Assembly: GCA_900114885.1 (NCBI GenBank)
Contig: FOUN01000016.1
Coordinates: 1-64,000, forward strand
Direction: 5' to 3'
Source of the DNA: Psychrobacillus psychrodurans
GTDB taxonomy: Bacteria; Bacillota; Bacilli; Bacillales_A; Planococcaceae
DNA: 64,000 nucleotides
Part shown: piece after piece, positions 298 through 35,577 of the stretch
Numbering within the stretch: the stretch's first letter is position 1
Layout: the number at the start of each line of letters is the position of its first letter
Made by a program: the position numbers and the translations under genes
Notes under the pieces: model-generated
Told to the model about the DNA's origin: nothing
Databases searched by the model: none
What the model saw: only the letters and a program-made list of their open reading frames with translations

Positions 298-372
298 TCC
301 GAAGTAGCTCAGTGGTAGAGCAATCGACTGTTAATCGATCGGTCGTAGGTTCGAGTCCTACCTTCGGAGCCA
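298..372 (+). tRNA. tRNA-Asn (GTT)
   Basis: Cloverleaf with 7-bp acceptor TCCGAAG/CTTCGGA, anticodon GTT in the loop of ctgttaat, T-loop ttcgagtc, and encoded CCA at 370-372. First tRNA after 5S. Confidence 0.97.
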
Positions 373-377
373 TTTTA

Positions 378-469
378 GGAGAGCTGTCCGAGTGGCCGAA
401 GGAGCACGATTGGAAATCGTGTAGGCGGGTTAAACTGTCTCAAGGGTTCAAATCCCTTGCTCTCCGCCA
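378..469 (+). tRNA. tRNA-Ser (GGA)
   Basis: Class II tRNA with long variable arm. Acceptor GGAGAGC/GCTCTCC, anticodon GGA in gattggaaatc, CCA encoded at 467-469. Confidence 0.97.
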
Positions 470-493
470 GATAAGTTTTCTACATAAAAGTAT

Positions 494-568
494 GGCCCCT
501 TGGTCAAGCGGTTAAGACACCGCCCTTTCACGGCGGTAACACGGGTTCGAATCCCGTAGGGGTCACCA
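494..568 (+). tRNA. tRNA-Glu (TTC)
   Basis: Acceptor GGCCCCT/AGGGGTC, anticodon TTC in ccctttcacgg, CCA encoded at 566-568. Near identical to the Bacillus tRNA-Glu. Confidence 0.97.
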
Positions 569-580
569 TTTATTTCAATT

Positions 581-607
581 AAGTTGACACAGAGATACGA
601 AGCTTAT
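581..607 (+). repeat. Partial copy of tRNA-spacer repeat (tail only)
   Basis: This segment repeats the 3' tail of the 100-bp spacer repeat at 624-723 (gttgacacagagatacgaag versus gttgacgcagagatgcgaag). It suggests a third, truncated copy directly upstream. Confidence 0.6.
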
Positions 608-623
608 CTTATGTAAAATTAGG

Positions 624-723
624 AGAAGCGAGTAAATCAAGGAAGCAATTGAGAGAATGAAGGAGCGTACTTATGTACGTGACTGATTGAACGAATGAAG
701 TTGACGCAGAGATGCGAAGCTTA
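624..723 (+). repeat. tRNA-spacer repeat, copy A
   Basis: A ~100-bp segment between tRNA-Glu and tRNA-Val that recurs at 1147-1246. Shared blocks include gaaggagcgtact, a small GTAC...GTAC inverted repeat, and gaacgaatgaag. No ORF with a ribosome site was found. Such spacers often hold RNA processing sites; that role is inference. Confidence 0.7.
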
Positions 724-738
724 TCGTAATATTACCCA

Positions 739-814
739 GGAGGATTAGCTCAGCTGGGAGAGCATCTGCCTTACAAGCAGAGGGTCGGCGGTTCGAGCCC
801 GTCATCCTCCACCA
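739..814 (+). tRNA. tRNA-Val (TAC)
   Basis: Acceptor GGAGGAT with its complement near 804-810, anticodon TAC in gccttacaagc, T-arm ggcggttcgagcccg, CCA at 812-814. Confidence 0.97.
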
Positions 815-834
815 TTTCTTTAAGAAATAAATTA

Positions 835-863
835 GTAAGCATTCTATTGTCGCGGGTGGAGCA
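835..863 (+). pseudogene. Remnant of tRNA-fMet 5' end plus upstream flank
   Basis: Positions 835-863 repeat 954-983, which covers the flank and first 14 nt of tRNA-fMet, with a few substitutions and one lost G in the acceptor stem. The similarity stops after ggagca and unrelated sequence follows to about 953. It looks like a broken duplicate of the initiator tRNA gene or the scar of an insertion. Confidence 0.6.
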
Positions 864-969
864 AATCGCTTTACGAAGCAAGCGATTAACACCGATGTAG
901 GCGTCAGCCGAAGCAGGTGTCCTACTTTTCTCATTCGTAGTAGCTTGGTGTTTGTAAGTATTTTATTGT

Positions 970-1044
<75 letters not shown>

Positions 1045-1047
1045 AAT

Positions 1048-1123
1048 GGTCCCGTGGTGTAGCGGTTAACATGCCTGCCTGTCACGCAGGAGATCGCCGG
1101 TTCGATCCCGGTCGGGACCGCCA
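1048..1123 (+). tRNA. tRNA-Asp (GTC)
   Basis: Acceptor GGTCCCG/CGGGACC, anticodon GTC in gcctgtcacgc, CCA at 1121-1123. Only 3 nt separate it from tRNA-fMet. Confidence 0.97.
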
Positions 1124-1146
1124 TTTATTTTATTTGAGATTTGAGA

Positions 1147-1246
1147 TAAGCAAGAAGATCGAGGAAGCGATTGAGTGATGGAAGGAGCGTACTAAAGTAC
1201 GTGACTGACTGAACGAATGAAGCTGACAAAGAGATTCGCAGCCTAG
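1147..1246 (+). repeat. tRNA-spacer repeat, copy B
   Basis: Second ~100-bp copy of the spacer at 624-723, between tRNA-Asp and tRNA-Phe. The GTAC inverted repeat and the following gtgactgactgaacgaatga block are kept, while the flanks drift. Confidence 0.7.
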
Positions 1247-1260
1247 CACAAATCGAAGTA

Positions 1261-1336
1261 GGCTCAGTAGCTCAGTCGGTAGAGCAAAGGACTGAAAATC
1301 CTTGTGTCGGCGGTTCGATTCCGTCCTGAGCCACCA
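1261..1336 (+). tRNA. tRNA-Phe (GAA)
   Basis: Acceptor GGCTCAG/CTGAGCC, anticodon GAA in gactgaaaatc, CCA at 1334-1336. Confidence 0.97.
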
Positions 1337-1345
1337 TATTTATAC

Positions 1346-1421
<76 letters not shown>

Positions 1422-1428
1422 CTATACT

Positions 1429-1512
1429 GGTGGGGTAGCGAAGTGGCTAAACGCGGCGGACTGTAAATCCGCTCCTTCGGGTTCGGCGGTTCGAATCCGT
1501 CCCCCACCACCA
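1429..1512 (+). tRNA. tRNA-Tyr (GTA)
   Basis: Class II bacterial tRNA-Tyr with a long variable arm. Acceptor GGTGGGG/CCCCACC, anticodon GTA in gactgtaaatc, CCA at 1510-1512. Confidence 0.97.
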
Positions 1513-1522
1513 GTTTTTATTT

Positions 1523-1596
1523 AGGGGCATAGTTTAACGGTAGAATAGAGGTCTCCAAAACCTTTGATGTGGGTTCGATTCCTACTGCCCCTGCCA
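1523..1596 (+). tRNA. tRNA-Trp (CCA)
   Basis: Acceptor AGGGGCA/TGCCCCT, anticodon CCA in gtctccaaaac, discriminator G, CCA at 1594-1596. Confidence 0.97.
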
Positions 1597-1620
1597 AATT
1601 ATAAGTTAACTTTGAATAAT

Positions 1621-1697
1621 GGCGGTTGTGGCGAAGTGGTTAACGCACCGGATTGTGATTCCGGCATTCGTGGGTTCAATTCCCATCAGTCGCCCCA
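1621..1697 (+). tRNA. tRNA-His (GTG), copy 1
   Basis: Anticodon GTG in gattgtgattc. The extra G-1 pairs with C73. The acceptor stem GCGGTTG/CAGTCGC is fully paired, including wobbles. CCA at 1695-1697. Confidence 0.96.
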
Positions 1698-1730
1698 TAT
1701 TCCTTAGTAGTTAGCTCTTTTTTTATTTGT

Positions 1731-1807
1731 GGCGGTCGTGGCGAAGTGGTTAACGCATCGGATTGTGATTCCGACACTCGGGGGTTCAATTCCCCTCGTC
1801 CGCCCCA
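1731..1807 (+). tRNA. tRNA-His (GTG), copy 2 with acceptor mismatch
   Basis: Tandem second tRNA-His with the same anticodon arm loop. In its acceptor stem, T1736 faces T1799 (a U-U mismatch), while the other six pairs and G-1:C73 hold. The variable and T-arm regions also differ from copy 1. It may be a diverging duplicate; function is not decided by sequence. Confidence 0.88.
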
Positions 1808-1808
1808 T

Positions 1809-1880
1809 TGGGGTATAGCCAAGCGGTAAGGCAATGGATTTTGATTCCATCATGCCCTGGTTCGAATCCAGGTACCCCAG
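1809..1880 (+). tRNA. tRNA-Gln (TTG), no encoded CCA
   Basis: Acceptor TGGGGTA/TACCCCA, anticodon TTG in gattttgattc, discriminator G1880. The next bases are tttttt, so CCA must be added after transcription. Confidence 0.95.
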
Positions 1881-1886
1881 TTTTTT

Positions 1887-1961
1887 GCGGAAGTAGTTCA
1901 GTGGTAGAACACCACCTTGCCAAGGTGGGGGTCGCGAGTTCGAACCTCGTCTTCCGCTCCA
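1887..1961 (+). tRNA. tRNA-Gly (GCC)
   Basis: Acceptor GCGGAAG/CTTCCGC, anticodon GCC in ccttgccaagg, CCA at 1959-1961. Confidence 0.97.
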
Positions 1962-1973
1962 TTACTTAATTAT

Positions 1974-2047
1974 GGCGGCATAGCCAAGTGGTAAGGCACA
2001 GGTCTGCAACACCTTTATCACCGGTTCAAATCCGGTTGCCGCCTCCA
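1974..2047 (+). tRNA. tRNA-Cys (GCA)
   Basis: Acceptor GGCGGCA/TGCCGCC, anticodon GCA in gtctgcaacac, CCA at 2045-2047. Confidence 0.96.
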
Positions 2048-2082
2048 ATTTTTATAATAACTGCCTAGTAGTATTTTATTTT

Positions 2083-2165
2083 GCCGGTGTGGCGGAATTG
2101 GCAGACGCGCGGGACTCAAAATCCCGTATCCTCTGGATGTGTCGGTTCGACCCCGACCACCGGTA
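2083..2165 (+). tRNA. tRNA-Leu (CAA), prophage attachment gene
   Basis: Class II tRNA. Acceptor GCCGGTG/CACCGGT with an initial G-U pair, anticodon CAA in gactcaaaatc, no encoded CCA. Its last 20 nt lie within the 21-bp sequence repeated at the far end of the prophage, so integration keeps the tRNA intact. The flank at attR also lacks CCA, so the ancestral gene lacked it too. Confidence 0.95.
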
Positions 2166-2166
2166 T
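2146..2166 (+). other. attL core (21-bp direct repeat)
   Basis: Identical to 35557-35577. It covers the 3' half of the tRNA-Leu T-loop and T-stem, the acceptor 3' strand and two following bases. The flanking bases differ on both sides, which defines the repeat limits. Confidence 0.95.
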
Positions 2167-28889: not shown

Positions 28890-29636
28890 CTATTTAATAC
28901 ATGATTCATAAAAGTTTTTACCAAACATGGTAACAGCTGCGTGAGTTCTAATAATTTTACTTTCACCTAATGAGTTTGCAATTTCTATTGATTGTTTTGT
29001 GACGGGGTGATTTTCTATATCTTCATAAAAAGTATCATCAGTTAACCGACCCTCATTATAAAGGTTAATCAGGCCCAATCGATTTAAATTATCTAAATAT
29101 GAATGGACATTATTAGGGAATTCACAACCAACTTTATATGAAACATCTGAGAAATTCTCTAATATAGGAGAATGATTAGAGCCGATTTGGCTGATAACTT
29201 TTATGGTTGGAAAATGATTACCTTTTATATGTTTCAGAATTTTAGCTTCATCAGGCGCAAGTTGTTTAATAATTTCAACGTAAGAAGGATGGACAGTATT
29301 TTCTTTTTCACTATCCATACTTGCTGCAATTAAGTTGGCAAACATATCACGGAGTTCTTCAGAGTGAATATAATATTTCGATGCCTCAATAGCAGGTCCT
29401 AGTATATGCATTTCTGGTTCAATAATGTTTTCTGGTAAAATATTTTCAACTTTAGCGTTAACTTTTTCTACAAAATCTTCATAATTTAGTTGATGTTTAT
29501 ATTCTTGTTTTTTTAACCATAAAGAAACATGGTTACCAAATACAAGATTCCATACTCCAGAAACAGTATTACCAACACTCTGTGCAACAGGAGTAGCAGC
29601 TTCATCTATAAATTTAGGTAGAATATTAATTTCCAT
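28890..29636 (-). CDS. AbiAlpha-like (DUF4393) protein, prophage moron
   Basis: 248 aa from ATG at 29636 (aaaggtggtg 7 nt upstream). Amphipathic N-terminus (EAATPVAQSVGNTVSGVWNL) followed by a helical domain with ELRDMFANLIAASMDSEK and HPSYVEIIKQLAPDEAKILKH, the pattern I know from DUF4393/Abi_alpha proteins, a family linked to abortive infection. Encoded opposite to the tail and lysis genes, with its own terminator, as for a lysogenic-conversion gene. Probable role: protection of the lysogen against other phages. Family match is by eye; function in this phage is inferred. Confidence 0.75.
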   Translation of the reverse strand: MEINILPKFIDEAATPVAQSVGNTVSGVWNLVFGNHVSLWLKKQEYKHQLNYEDFVEKVNAKVENILPENIIEPEMHILGPAIEASKYYIHSEELRDMFANLIAASMDSEKENTVHPSYVEIIKQLAPDEAKILKHIKGNHFPTIKVISQIGSNHSPILENFSDVSYKVGCEFPNNVHSYLDNLNRLGLINLYNEGRLTDDTFYEDIENHPVTKQSIEIANSLGESKIIRTHAAVTMFGKNFYESCIK

Positions 29637-29678
29637 TTTTTCACCACCTTTCAAAATCAATTATAGGAGGATTTATCT

Positions 29679-30258: not shown

Positions 30259-30522
30259 ATGACAGAAGTATTATTATTCTCAACAGTAATTGTCCCAATA
30301 GTTTTGGGTGTAGTGGAATTAATTAAAAGATCAGTATCGGAGAAACTTAATAAAAACCTCATACCACTCATCGCATTTGCGGTGGGTATTTTTATTGGCT
30401 TTGCAGGCGAACCGTTTACTGATTTAGATTTAACCTTAAGACTATGGGCAGGAGCTTTAGCTGGACTCGCTTCTACAGGTTTATTTGAAATTGGGAACGA
30501 AAGAAATGAAGGTGTTGAGTAG
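30259..30522 (+). CDS. Holin
   Basis: 87 aa with two hydrophobic spans (about 5-20, LFSTVIVPIVLGVVEL; about 36-52, IPLIAFAVGIFIGF) and a third weaker one (about 65-80, WAGALAGLASTGLF), ending in a charged tail. Strong site taggagg. Overlaps the endolysin start (tagtg). Releases the amidase by forming membrane holes. Confidence 0.87.
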   Translation: MTEVLLFSTVIVPIVLGVVELIKRSVSEKLNKNLIPLIAFAVGIFIGFAGEPFTDLDLTLRLWAGALAGLASTGLFEIGNERNEGVE

Positions 30523-31283
30523 TGGCTAAAATACAAGACATCCGAAATAAAGTAGCTCCTTCAAAATCAACTCGTAAAACATCACAAATAACCAAAATAG
30601 CACGTCACCATTCAGCTACAACGAGTGGTGACTATTTCGCCTTTTGGAATAACCGTTGGAAAGGTCTTGGTTGGGGGAAAGGTGGATATCATGAAATTAT
30701 TTTAACCGATGGAACAGTTCAACTTTGTTACGATCCGATTTATCCTACTAACGGGATTGGTAATCATAATACAAACACCTATCATATTTGTGTGGTTGGG
30801 AATGGTGCATTTACTGCAGCACAAGAAAGAGCATTTGAGGAAAGATGTTTAATAGCTATACAGAACTTTGATTTAAGTGTAGATGATGTACTTGGTCATA
30901 ATGAATTTAAAGGGACAGCAACATCTTGTCCAGGAATAAATATGGATAGCGTCCGTAAACGGTTGAAATCTTTATTAATACCGAACCAAGTTGGAGGTGT
31001 TTCTAATGATAAAATAATGTGGGGTAAAACAGAATTAAAGCCTGGTCAAATAGGTAAGGTAACAATACTCAAAAGAATTAACTTGTGGCAAGATGGTCCG
31101 ACCGGTAAACTTCAAATGGTTCGTGTTTTGAATCCTGGTGAAGAGTATCGTGTATATCGATATCGTGAAGATCATGATGGTCAATATAATGTTGGCGGTG
31201 GCATGTGGGTTACTAAAATGGACGGACATATTAAGTATGAAACTCCTTCAAAAGCAATGTTGGAACAATTAAATAACAGATAA
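30522..31283 (+). CDS. Endolysin: N-acetylmuramoyl-L-alanine amidase + SH3-like domain
   Basis: 253 aa. Residues about 22-150 are an Amidase_2/PGRP domain that cuts the bond between muramic acid and L-Ala. Zinc ligands by comparison with T7 lysozyme: H29 (RHHSA), H126 (LGHNEF) and C136 (TSCPG), with Y56 in GGYHEI. Residues about 164-250 form a C-terminal SH3-like wall-binding domain (MWGKTELKPGQIGK, GEEYRVYRY, VGGGMWV). That same domain recurs in the secreted protein at 34694-35353. GTG start overlaps the holin stop. Confidence 0.95.
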   Translation: MAKIQDIRNKVAPSKSTRKTSQITKIARHHSATTSGDYFAFWNNRWKGLGWGKGGYHEIILTDGTVQLCYDPIYPTNGIGNHNTNTYHICVVGNGAFTAAQERAFEERCLIAIQNFDLSVDDVLGHNEFKGTATSCPGINMDSVRKRLKSLLIPNQVGGVSNDKIMWGKTELKPGQIGKVTILKRINLWQDGPTGKLQMVRVLNPGEEYRVYRYREDHDGQYNVGGGMWVTKMDGHIKYETPSKAMLEQLNNR

Positions 31284-31371: not shown

Positions 31372-31411
31372 AATTTAAGTAAAAGGTACTTATACAAAAA
31401 GGAGAATGGTC

Positions 31412-32350
31412 ATGAGAATAAGAGAAATGTTAGAAATTTTGGATGAAAATATAGACTACTTAGAAGTTGAGCATGTTATAAGTAATAATAAATACGAGTT
31501 AATTAATTTACCGAAAATTTCCTTAGCAATAAATAAAATTAATGAATTAGGATTTATAGACAACCAATTTGAAATAATAAATAAAGATCTTAGACATGTT
31601 TTCAATGATAGAAGTCCTCAAATATGGGTTGACACGAATGTATTTGAAAAAGTGAAAAATGTTGTAAGTCAAGTATATACTTTATCAATTGCAGTATTTA
31701 ATGCTCTTAACCAAGCTATATCAGAACAAGATGAATTATCAATAAGTTTTAAGCTACCTCATTATAATCAACTTTCAGAAGTTGCAACATTCATTAAAGA
31801 TATTGATAATATTTGCGGCCAAACATTAACAGGAAAATTTAAAGCAAACGTCAAGTTTCAGAATTTTGATACTGGATCTGAATGGATTGAAATAGTAATA
31901 GACAATAAGGAAGCTTTTTTGTTCTTTGGACAAATTGTTTCCAGTGCTTTCAAATATCTTCGAGAACATCTTACGCAACTTAAACAAACACAAAGTATAC
32001 TTCAAACTATAGAAATTGATGAAAAAGCTGAAGAAGCAAGAAAATTAATGCTAGAAGCATTAGATAATAATGTAAAAGCTCAAGCTAGACTCAATGCAAA
32101 AATGTTAATGGAAGATTTCAATATCGATATAAAAGATAATGATTACCATGGTAAATTGACATATTCGATTTCTAAATTAGCTGAGCTAATCCAAAAGGGA
32201 ACAGAGGTACATACTGCTATCAATGCACCAGAAGATAGTAAAGAAGTTTATCCAGATCCAAAACAATTAATTCTTGTTGATAAAGATGTTAAATTTATAT
32301 CTGAAAAGAATCCTAAAGAAAAAGACCAACAAAATGAGGATAATGAATAA
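31412..32350 (+). CDS. Unknown moron protein (312 aa), candidate defence gene
   Basis: About 312 aa, not recognised with certainty. ATG 31412 fits the site aaggag; 31406 is too close. It is helical with a central beta segment GKFKANVKFQNFDTGSEWIE followed by a hydrophobic helix (FLFFGQIVSSAFKYLREHL), then a long charged helix (EKAEEARKLMLEALDNNVKA). The 'FDTGSEWIEI + hydrophobic helix' pattern reminds me of helical proteins found in anti-phage islands, but this is only a visual impression. It has its own promoter (31343) and terminator (32361), so it is an autonomous moron. Confidence 0.8.
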   Translation: MRIREMLEILDENIDYLEVEHVISNNKYELINLPKISLAINKINELGFIDNQFEIINKDLRHVFNDRSPQIWVDTNVFEKVKNVVSQVYTLSIAVFNALNQAISEQDELSISFKLPHYNQLSEVATFIKDIDNICGQTLTGKFKANVKFQNFDTGSEWIEIVIDNKEAFLFFGQIVSSAFKYLREHLTQLKQTQSILQTIEIDEKAEEARKLMLEALDNNVKAQARLNAKMLMEDFNIDIKDNDYHGKLTYSISKLAELIQKGTEVHTAINAPEDSKEVYPDPKQLILVDKDVKFISEKNPKEKDQQNEDNE

Positions 32351-34139: not shown

Positions 34140-34150
34140 GAGTGGTTCAT

Positions 34151-34480
34151 TTGATTAGAGATCGCGGTATGATGAAATGGCAAGGCATGATGTTAACAGA
34201 ACACGTAGTGATGTTGAAAGAATATAATCAGGAAATTAGAAAAAAACTTAGGCCAGTATTAGATGAATGGGATTATGATGCCATTCAACATACTTTGGAT
34301 GCAGCCATTAAAAGTAAAGCTGATACGAAAATTAAAAGATGGAAAGATGGAGAATTTATTTATAATAGAGGAACAGTAGAAAATGTGAATTTGCAGAAGC
34401 GAGAAATCGAATTGCAAGATCCTTTTTATTTGTTATCATTAAAGCTTGATGAAATAGTAGACGTAACTATTATGGATTAA
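34151..34480 (+). CDS. YolD-like protein
   Basis: About 109 aa from TTG 34151 (ataggagtgg upstream). MMLTEHVVMLKEYNQEIRKK and the middle beta region fit the YolD family, which is encoded beside UvrX/YqjW-type polymerases and predicted to act with them. Follows the polymerase by 11 nt. Confidence 0.82.
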   Translation: MIRDRGMMKWQGMMLTEHVVMLKEYNQEIRKKLRPVLDEWDYDAIQHTLDAAIKSKADTKIKRWKDGEFIYNRGTVENVNLQKREIELQDPFYLLSLKLDEIVDVTIMD

Positions 34481-34494
34481 AGGTCGTGAGTGAA

Positions 34495-34665
34495 TTGGAT
34501 AGAACGGAAGAACTATTTAATAAGTTATTGGATGAACACCCTCCAGAATTAATATTAGGTGCATTAGATGAAATGTCACGCATGTCGAGAAATGAACTAT
34601 TAGCATTGTCAGAGCTATGTGAAGTCATAAATAGAGTAGAAGCTAAAAACCACCAACCAGATTAA
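34495..34665 (+). CDS. Hypothetical protein at end of SOS operon (56 aa)
   Basis: 56-aa acidic helical protein (DRTEELFNKLLDEHPPELIL). Start TTG 34495 with aaaggt 10 nt upstream; GTG 34486 is too close. The stop lies inside the loop of the following terminator. Function unknown. Confidence 0.65.
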   Translation: MDRTEELFNKLLDEHPPELILGALDEMSRMSRNELLALSELCEVINRVEAKNHQPD

Positions 34666-34680
34666 TGGGAGGTGGTTTTT
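34646..34680. terminator. Terminator between SOS operon and Ltp-like gene
   Basis: Stem AAAACCACC/GGTGGTTTT with a T-rich 3' side on both strands, between convergent genes. It probably serves both. Confidence 0.75.
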
Positions 34681-34693
34681 ACTTTAATGAAAA

Positions 34694-35353
34694 TTATAAA
34701 TTATCTATCGCGTACTGTGCTTCTTCCGGAGTGAATTTTTCACCATAAACCGAAACCAATTGATCGTAAATAGCAGATTCCGACATGCTCATATTTACTG
34801 AATATGACTGTGCCTTTTTTAATGCATTTTCTTTCCAATTGACTACAAGGGTATCGATAGCGTATTGCGCGGCTTCTGGAGGGAATTTCTCTCCATATTC
34901 AGAAGTCAACTGTTCATAAATTCTTGCCTTTGATAAGTGCATATTTTTCGCGTATATTTCTGCTTTATTTAATGCCGATTTATATTCTCTAGAAACAGAT
35001 TCTTTTTGTAGTAAAGCTAGTTTGGATTTAGATGGCGTTTCATATTTTACCTTCGCATTTTTCTGTACAAAGCTACCTCCACCAACTCCATAAAGACCAC
35101 CATGATTGCTCTTGTAACTATATACACGATATTCTTCGCCTTTTTTCATCGAACGGACAGTAGTAAGGGAACCGTCACTTTCTAATTTGACCAAATTAGT
35201 ATTAGAAAGTATAGTAGCTTTACCGATTTGACCTAATTTTAGTTCTGTTTTTCCCCACATCACTTTAGCAGCACTTGCACTATTGCCATTAAAAGATACA
35301 ATTCCAACTACTAACATTACCACGACTATTGCTTTAATTAATTTAGAAAACAA
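34694..35353 (-). CDS. Secreted Ltp-type superinfection-exclusion protein with endolysin SH3 domain
   Basis: 219 aa. Residues 1-29 are a signal peptide (KLIKAIVVVMLVVGIV, cut probably after SASAA). There is no lipobox Cys, unlike classic Ltp. Residues about 30-115 closely repeat the SH3-like C-terminal domain of the prophage endolysin (MWGKTELK, GQIGK, GEEYRVY, VGGG, KYETPSK shared). Residues about 125-170 and 173-219 are two Ltp-type repeats (SKARIYEQLTSEYGEKF; SESAIYDQLVSVYGEKF), known from the TP-J34 Ltp lipoprotein that blocks DNA injection of other phages. TTG start with aggaggag. It lies beside attR on the opposite strand, a lysogenic-conversion position. Confidence 0.87.
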   Translation of the reverse strand: MFSKLIKAIVVVMLVVGIVSFNGNSASAAKVMWGKTELKLGQIGKATILSNTNLVKLESDGSLTTVRSMKKGEEYRVYSYKSNHGGLYGVGGGSFVQKNAKVKYETPSKSKLALLQKESVSREYKSALNKAEIYAKNMHLSKARIYEQLTSEYGEKFPPEAAQYAIDTLVVNWKENALKKAQSYSVNMSMSESAIYDQLVSVYGEKFTPEEAQYAIDNL

Positions 35354-35493
35354 AGTATATCTCCTCCTACATCCTAATAGTACAAGTATACTATTAATTC
35401 AGTATATAGGAAGTGATATTTAATTACCGGAAAATCATTTATGAAAATACAGAAGGAGACTATTTCAAGGTGGTATTATTTTGTTTATAAATA

Positions 35494-35556: not shown

Positions 35557-35577
35557 TTCGACCCCGACCACCGGTAT
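35557..35577 (+). other. attR core (21-bp direct repeat)
   Basis: Identical to 2146-2166, the 3' end of tRNA-Leu. Beyond it host sequence resumes. The upstream flank (agtata) differs from the tRNA, showing that the tRNA itself is at attL. Confidence 0.95.

What the first reader, a model, noticed from the sequence alone, without database searches (positions are those of the whole stretch)
34694..35353. Superinfection-exclusion repeats fused to the phage's own endolysin wall-binding domain
Seen: the secreted protein near attR has a signal peptide without lipobox, a domain about half identical by eye to the endolysin C-terminus (30522-31283, residues ~164-250), and two Ltp-type repeats. Known: TP-J34 Ltp is a membrane lipoprotein whose repeats stop DNA entry of other phages, apparently through their tape measure protein. 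Inference: here the repeats are held at the wall by the endolysin's SH3-like domain instead of a lipid, a wall-docked exclusion factor built from phage lysis parts.
Basis: partly seen in the sequence, partly recalled or inferred. Interest (0 to 1): 0.85.

Follow-up and report, generated by a model that had tools for sequence, protein, structure and literature searches.

The report
Wall-anchored phage-blocking protein in a prophage
A dormant virus in a Bacillus-like bacterium carries a secreted protein that probably sits in the cell wall and stops rival viruses from injecting their DNA; it looks like a bacterial wall-binding tag joined to a blocking domain that is usually tied to the membrane.

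Summary
Window 34694-35353 (-) encodes a 219-residue secreted protein: signal peptide without lipobox, an 87-residue basic domain, two PF07553 (Ltp) repeats (E 1.3e-48). It lies just inside attR of a siphoprophage (2146-35577) of Psychrobacillus. The basic domain is related to the phage's endolysin C-terminus (56% identity) and is predicted to fold like SH3-type wall-binding domains. The gene is a chimera. Codons 1-116 with upstream DNA match a gene at the same locus of Psychrobacillus phage PVJ1 and of one viral contig, where the anchor carries a different payload (phrog_8870); codons 121-219 match Ltp genes of relatives, the best a transmembrane type at 87% DNA identity. In some other phages each payload occurs as a lipoprotein beside the integrase. 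Wall-docked Ltp has precedents by architecture: pneumococcal CbpL, and a choline-binding-Ltp fusion found here in a viral contig. Best reading: an anchor-swapped Ltp superinfection-exclusion protein on an exchangeable-payload wall platform. No function was tested. New variant of a known kind.

The parts
34694..35353 (-). wall-anchored Ltp gene, 219 aa, TTG start
35267..35353 (-). signal peptide, residues 1-29, no lipobox
   Evidence: hydrophobic core; no Cys; cleavage site by eye
35006..35266 (-). SH3-like basic anchor domain, residues 30-116, pI 9.9, net charge +9
34992..35007 (-). recombination junction, gene nt 347-362 (codons 116-121)
   Evidence: homology to PVJ1/L075 ends at nt 347; homology to Ltp genes of relatives starts at nt 357-365 in six (L063, L046, L112, L217, L016, L061) and at 347 in one (L018)
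34697..34999 (-). two PF07553 (Ltp) repeats, residues 119-219, pI 5.1, net charge -3
35354..35401 (-). conserved upstream region and ribosome-binding site shared with PVJ1 and L075 (includes palindrome AATAGTA-TACTTG-TACTATT within 35375-35395)
34645..34680 (.). hairpin between this gene and the convergent yolD side, terminator-like
   Evidence: -16.4 kcal/mol, z -4.3; 46-nt stretch, 83% identical, in L075; not picked up by the consensus scan
35557..35577 (.). attR core, 21 bp
2146..2166 (.). attL core, 3' end of tRNA-Leu(caa)
34142..34480 (+). YolD-family gene (PF08863), convergent neighbour; a relative lies beside the corresponding gene in PVJ1, L075 and L112
30522..31283 (+). endolysin (Amidase_2) with a paralogous C-terminal domain (about residues 164-251)

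Best explanation
A prophage lysogenic-conversion protein that most likely acts as a superinfection-exclusion factor. Shown from sequence: a gene for a secreted, non-lipid chimera of a Psychrobacillus secretion-plus-anchor cassette (predicted SH3-like fold) and a two-repeat Ltp payload whose nearest relatives are membrane-anchored, sitting beside yolD where related phages carry the same anchor with another payload. Inferred: the gene is read in the lysogen from its own upstream region; signal peptidase I releases the protein; the basic SH3-like domain binds teichoic acid or peptidoglycan and keeps the protein in the wall; the acidic Ltp repeats there meet the tape measure protein of an incoming siphophage as it leaves the tail and stop DNA entry, as proposed for TP-J34 Ltp.
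Confidence: 0.6

Rival explanations
1. Released decoy: the domain does not hold the protein; it is secreted and acts, if at all, as a soluble Ltp on phage tails, like UsLtp1.
For: UsLtp1 is active when secreted (PMC3952083). Three of 76 viral Ltp proteins look secreted without an anchor (L285, L286, L296, partly by eye).
Against: Basic SH3-like domain with wall-binding structural neighbours; the same domain on endolysin-type and other wall hydrolases.
Confidence: 0.15
2. Surface protein for something other than phage exclusion (adhesion, wall homeostasis), as CbpL is described in pneumococcus.
For: CbpL has a wall-docked Ltp domain and is studied for adhesion and virulence (PMC5137146 passages); host paralogues of the anchor carry non-phage payloads.
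Against: Prophage slot next to attR; the only PF07553 matches of this genome at E <= 0.001 are the two repeats of this gene; relatives of the alternative payload sit beside the integrase in phages SpT152 and Vegas.
Confidence: 0.15
3. Endolysin-receptor shield: the anchor domain, a paralogue of the endolysin wall-binding domain, occupies the same wall sites and protects lysogens from lysis from without; Ltp adds DNA-entry exclusion.
For: 48-56% identity to the endolysin domain; both are rows of the alignment behind the fold model.
Against: The two domains fall in separate clades, so a shared ligand is unknown; nothing tested.
Confidence: 0.05
4. One reading: the anchor was copied from this phage's endolysin.
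For: BLASTP E 9e-30 between the two.
Against: Tree and identities; the anchor with signal peptide and upstream DNA matches PVJ1 and L075 secreted proteins.
Confidence: 0.03

Closest known systems
Ltp of Streptococcus thermophilus phage TP-J34 (PF07553; PDB 4eqq)
   Same: Two Ltp repeats, acidic, exported, encoded by a temperate phage on the strand of the integrase.
   Different: TP-J34 Ltp is a lipoprotein with a Ser-rich spacer, encoded between metallopeptidase and int; here there is no lipobox, an SH3-like domain stands where lipid and spacer stood, and the gene is on the other side of attP from int.
UsLtp1, engineered secreted non-lipid derivative of TP-J34 Ltp (PMC3952083)
   Same: Secreted, no lipid.
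   Different: Engineered and, as described there, soluble; the window protein is natural and has a wall-type domain.
CbpL of Streptococcus pneumoniae (PMC5137146, passages)
   Same: Exported non-lipid protein with an Ltp domain, held at the wall by a wall-binding module.
   Different: Choline-binding module and Excalibur domain; not described as prophage-located in the passages read; one Ltp domain; studied for virulence.
PVJ1_00043 'stress protein' of Psychrobacillus phage PVJ1 and its kin in L075
   Same: Same locus, upstream region, signal peptide and anchor domain (84% over residues 1-119).
   Different: Payload is phrog_8870 (unknown function), not Ltp.
CwpV of Clostridioides difficile (PMC4737114, passages)
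   Same: Cell-wall protein that blocks phage DNA injection without affecting adsorption.
   Different: Host-encoded and phase-variable; its sequence was not compared here.

Membership tests
PF07553 Ltp repeat family | significant match to the repeat model over the curated cut-off | tested here: met
   two stretches, 163.4 bits against 23.2
Ltp-type superinfection-exclusion lipoproteins (TP-J34 type) | lipobox Cys and lipid anchor | tested here: not met
   no Cys in the protein; so it is an Ltp-repeat protein, not an Ltp lipoprotein
Ltp-type superinfection-exclusion lipoproteins (TP-J34 type) | acidic repeat domain with an export signal | tested here: met
   residues 119-219 pI 5.13, net -3; hydrophobic signal peptide core. 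Export itself is inferred.
Ltp-type superinfection-exclusion lipoproteins (TP-J34 type) | blocks DNA entry of other phages | not testable with these tools
   needs infection assays
Bacterial SH3 (SH3b) wall-binding domains | SH3b fold | tested here: inconclusive
Bacterial SH3 (SH3b) wall-binding domains | binds peptidoglycan or teichoic acid | not testable with these tools
   inferred from basic charge and company on wall hydrolases
Endolysin cell-wall-binding domain of this phage | descends from the endolysin lineage of the domain | tested here: not met
   9 of 9 endolysin rows form a clade (96/93) that excludes it
Wall-docked Ltp proteins (CbpL-like) | Ltp domain plus wall-binding-type module, no lipobox | tested here: met
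   architecture only; wall binding not shown; the anchor was not compared with choline-binding repeats beyond the absence of a Pfam match

The most novel reading that the evidence does not exclude
Psychrobacillus temperate phages run an exchangeable-payload exclusion platform: one cassette (upstream region, TTG start, signal peptide, SH3-like wall anchor, terminator) on which unrelated exclusion payloads are swapped at one junction. Ltp and phrog_8870, which in other phages are lipoproteins encoded beside the integrase, are both such payloads, so phrog_8870 would be an unrecognised superinfection-exclusion family, and wall docking a recurrent alternative to membrane docking for these factors.
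Probability: 0.35. Interest if true: 0.72.

Novelty: new variant of a known kind. Interest (0 to 1): 0.55.

Why it matters
It is a natural counterpart of the engineered secreted Ltp that inhibited phages the lipoprotein did not, and it asks directly whether an exclusion factor must sit at the membrane or can act from the wall. The same-locus payload swap gives a sequence-based handle on phrog_8870, a family without a named function in PHROGs, and predicts that it is an exclusion factor.

Tried and rejected
Endolysin origin of the anchor: rejected by tree and identities. Anchor as ordinary SH3_3: no profile support, though the predicted fold is SH3b-like. Anchor in Pfam: no family for the window domain at E <= 1; of 49 members one matched DUF5776 at 8.5e-4 and one SlpA at 0.083, among other scattered weak rows; hhalign to 18 DUF5776 copies gave 62%. 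SlpA (PF03217) was sought as a comparison set but 1 of 200 genomes matched, so it was not used. NCBIfam and PADLOC gave nothing for this protein. The 14-nt core of the upstream palindrome, with up to 2 mismatches, occurs once in the window, where shuffles average 0.7, and at 5 places with up to 1 mismatch in the genome against 3 for the control, so no regulon claim. 0 of 19 genomes of the genus match the PVJ1 payload (the tool notes that an empty answer without a positive control shows nothing). The choline-binding-Ltp protein was not found again: 3 of 398 phylum genomes matched it at E <= 1e-20, all through the Ltp part. In one search the 'secreted' group (41 rows) was labelled by me, includes two very distant rows (L050, L052, 26-27%), and rows with a domain match under 70 positions were dropped. 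In one search only proteins with exactly two repeats and at most 115 aa were treed (80 rows), and the bootstrap had not settled. Anchor labels rest on simple hydrophobicity and lipobox rules; I re-read 20 'neither' cases and by eye, and moved L296 from TM to secreted by eye. L112/L011 is labelled lipobox by the rule but its N-terminus is uncertain. Two full-protein alignments misplaced the Ltp rows (A2, A3) and were not used for modelling.

Full report
Observation. The gene at 34694-35353 (-) is an intact frame: 219 codons, TTG start preceded by AGGAGGAG, one signal peptide, no cysteine, then a basic domain and two Ltp repeats. PF07553 matches twice, E 1.3e-48; phrog_4980 'superinfection exclusion' matches over residues 3-219; the TP-J34 Ltp structure 4eqq matches residues 119-219 at 2e-17. 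The endolysin (Amidase_2) shares the domain: 48% over 113 aa, E 9e-30. The prophage runs from attL 2146-2166 in tRNA-Leu(caa) to attR 35557-35577 (21 identical bp). Among the 18 window proteins scanned with Pfam are integrase, M78 metallopeptidase, an HTH repressor candidate, Rha/ORF6C, terminase, portal, capsid, tape measure (PhageMin_Tail), Dit-like tail protein, Gp37-like protein, holin and endolysin. The host genus is taken as Psychrobacillus because contigs of its genus mates have the lengths of named Psychrobacillus contigs (G011:C11 278029 and G007:C21 40687).

Origin of the anchor. Tree of 53 domain copies (89 columns, many forks open): 9 of 9 endolysin rows form one clade (96/93). The window domain groups with the domains of PVJ1_00043 and L075 (87/82) inside a 27-row clade without endolysins (98/87). 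Identity of the window domain: 12 secreted host rows at 82.8-88.5%, the two phage proteins 87.5% and 86.4%, its own endolysin 55.7%.

A chimera at a swapped-payload locus. In the phages collection 70 records match and none covers 80% of the protein; in plasmids 32 match and none does. The best phage record, PVJ1, matches residues 1-119 at 84%. PVJ1_00043 and its kin in viral contig L075 share the upstream region, start codon, signal peptide and anchor, and lie near yolD and a lexA-like gene, with dinB also in PVJ1. DNA identity to PVJ1 is 77% over 398 nt and stops at the codon for residue 116; in L075 a 46-nt stretch at the terminator matches again. Towards the 3' end the window gene instead matches Ltp genes of relatives over nt 362-660: 87.3% (L063, TM type), 85.0% (L046, N-terminus not read), 84.6% (L112, N-terminus uncertain). 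In L112, from another member of the genus and by eye not in a prophage, such an Ltp gene is convergent to a short yolD-like frame, so both kinds of parent are seen next to a yolD relative. Synonymous divergence of the anchor from secreted relatives is 1.5-1.8 or not computable, of the Ltp half 0.36-0.53; dN/dS is well below 1 in both where computable. The comparators differ, but this fits a resident anchor cassette that received a newer payload.

The other payload. Residues 118-235 of PVJ1_00043 match phrog_8870, unknown function. Relatives of this part occur in 35 phage records, PVJ1 included. The three others that I read (Vegas, SpT152, phage 37; not scanned with PHROGs) begin with a lipobox by eye. 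In SpT152 the gene stands directly before int, in Vegas it follows int with two small frames between, and in phage 37 the neighbours are unnamed. TP-J34 ltp and the Ltp genes of Javan636 and S193 also stand directly before int. Two lipoprotein families with such a position have thus each been put on the same anchor in Psychrobacillus phages. That phrog_8870 excludes phages is my inference.

How Ltp repeats are held elsewhere. Of 80 viral loci kept from 137 relatives, 76 proteins are distinct: 14 lipobox, 56 transmembrane helix, 3 secreted without a visible anchor, 1 with choline-binding repeats, 2 with unreadable N-termini (rule-based, partly by eye). The choline-binding one, L244, has Choline_bind_1 E 7e-35 and PF07553 E 1e-49 and lies near an SPP1-type portal gene; L257 has a TM helix, PASTA and Ltp. 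The window Ltp falls in a 43-row clade with 37 TM, 4 lipobox and 1 unlabelled row (100/97); its nearest rows by path are L046, L011 and L063. None of the 84 domain-bearing proteins read has Ltp repeats (capped lists). So, by architecture, Ltp repeats have been joined to unrelated wall-type modules more than once, and the window's combination was seen only here in the collections searched.

Literature. TP-J34 Ltp is a lipoprotein proposed to act on the tape measure protein, and the secreted derivative UsLtp1 inhibited phages that the lipoprotein did not (PMC3952083, sections 3, 16, 17). CbpL carries a non-lipid, wall-docked Ltp domain that its authors call unique within the family (PMC5137146, passages). 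CwpV shows that a wall protein can block DNA injection; its authors note there is no direct evidence for Ltp binding the tape measure protein (PMC4737114, passages). The PVJ1 paper has no occurrence of 'stress protein' or 'superinfection' in its text (PMC8779076, term search). PMC11480721 was seen in passages. Six searches showed, in the titles and abstract starts of the rows listed (20 of 37, 20 of 36, 10 of 27, 2 of 2, 11 of 11, 1 of 1), no paper on a wall-docked phage Ltp.

Mechanism. Shown: architecture, chimera, locus, low dN/dS. Inferred: lysogenic expression, wall binding, tape-measure contact, exclusion. Compared with membrane docking, wall docking would place the repeats further out on the tail's path; UsLtp1 suggests that a lipid is not needed for activity.

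Noticed in passing
window 28890-29660 (-): Abi_alpha gene (PF14337 E 1e-59; PADLOC PDC-S47 E 4e-59) between tail and lysis genes, opposite to the late genes: a second likely anti-phage gene in the same prophage.
   Followed up: partly
window 31406-32350 (+): 314-aa protein without PHROG match or Pfam match over cut-off, next to the endolysin where PVJ1 is annotated with a DNA ligase and L075 and L163 have a ligase-like frame by eye: a second variable slot.
   Followed up: partly
window 35375-35395: Palindrome AATAGTA-TACTTG-TACTATT upstream of the gene, identical in PVJ1, altered in L075; one copy in the window. Possible operator.
   Followed up: partly
L244:2386-3309 (IMGVR_UViG_2832234917_000003): Signal peptide + choline-binding repeats + two Ltp repeats near an SPP1-type portal gene: a second wall-type Ltp fusion, in a viral contig.
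   Followed up: partly
L285, L286, L296: Ltp-repeat proteins with a signal peptide but no visible anchor: possible natural secreted Ltp.
   Followed up: no
plasmid records, e.g. NZ_LC201957.1 (2.5 kb), NZ_CP064763.1 (6.4 kb): Ltp genes on very small plasmids, so exclusion genes may travel outside phages.
   Followed up: no
L004, L007, L017, L102, L130 and other Psychrobacillus loci: Genus-wide set of small secreted proteins with one signal-plus-SH3-like N-terminus and many different C-terminal parts (Excalibur confirmed in L130; others such as a metallo-hydrolase-like part in L007 and L102 by eye).
   Followed up: partly
window 298-2166: Array of 16 tRNA genes; the prophage sits in the last one, tRNA-Leu(caa).
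   Followed up: no
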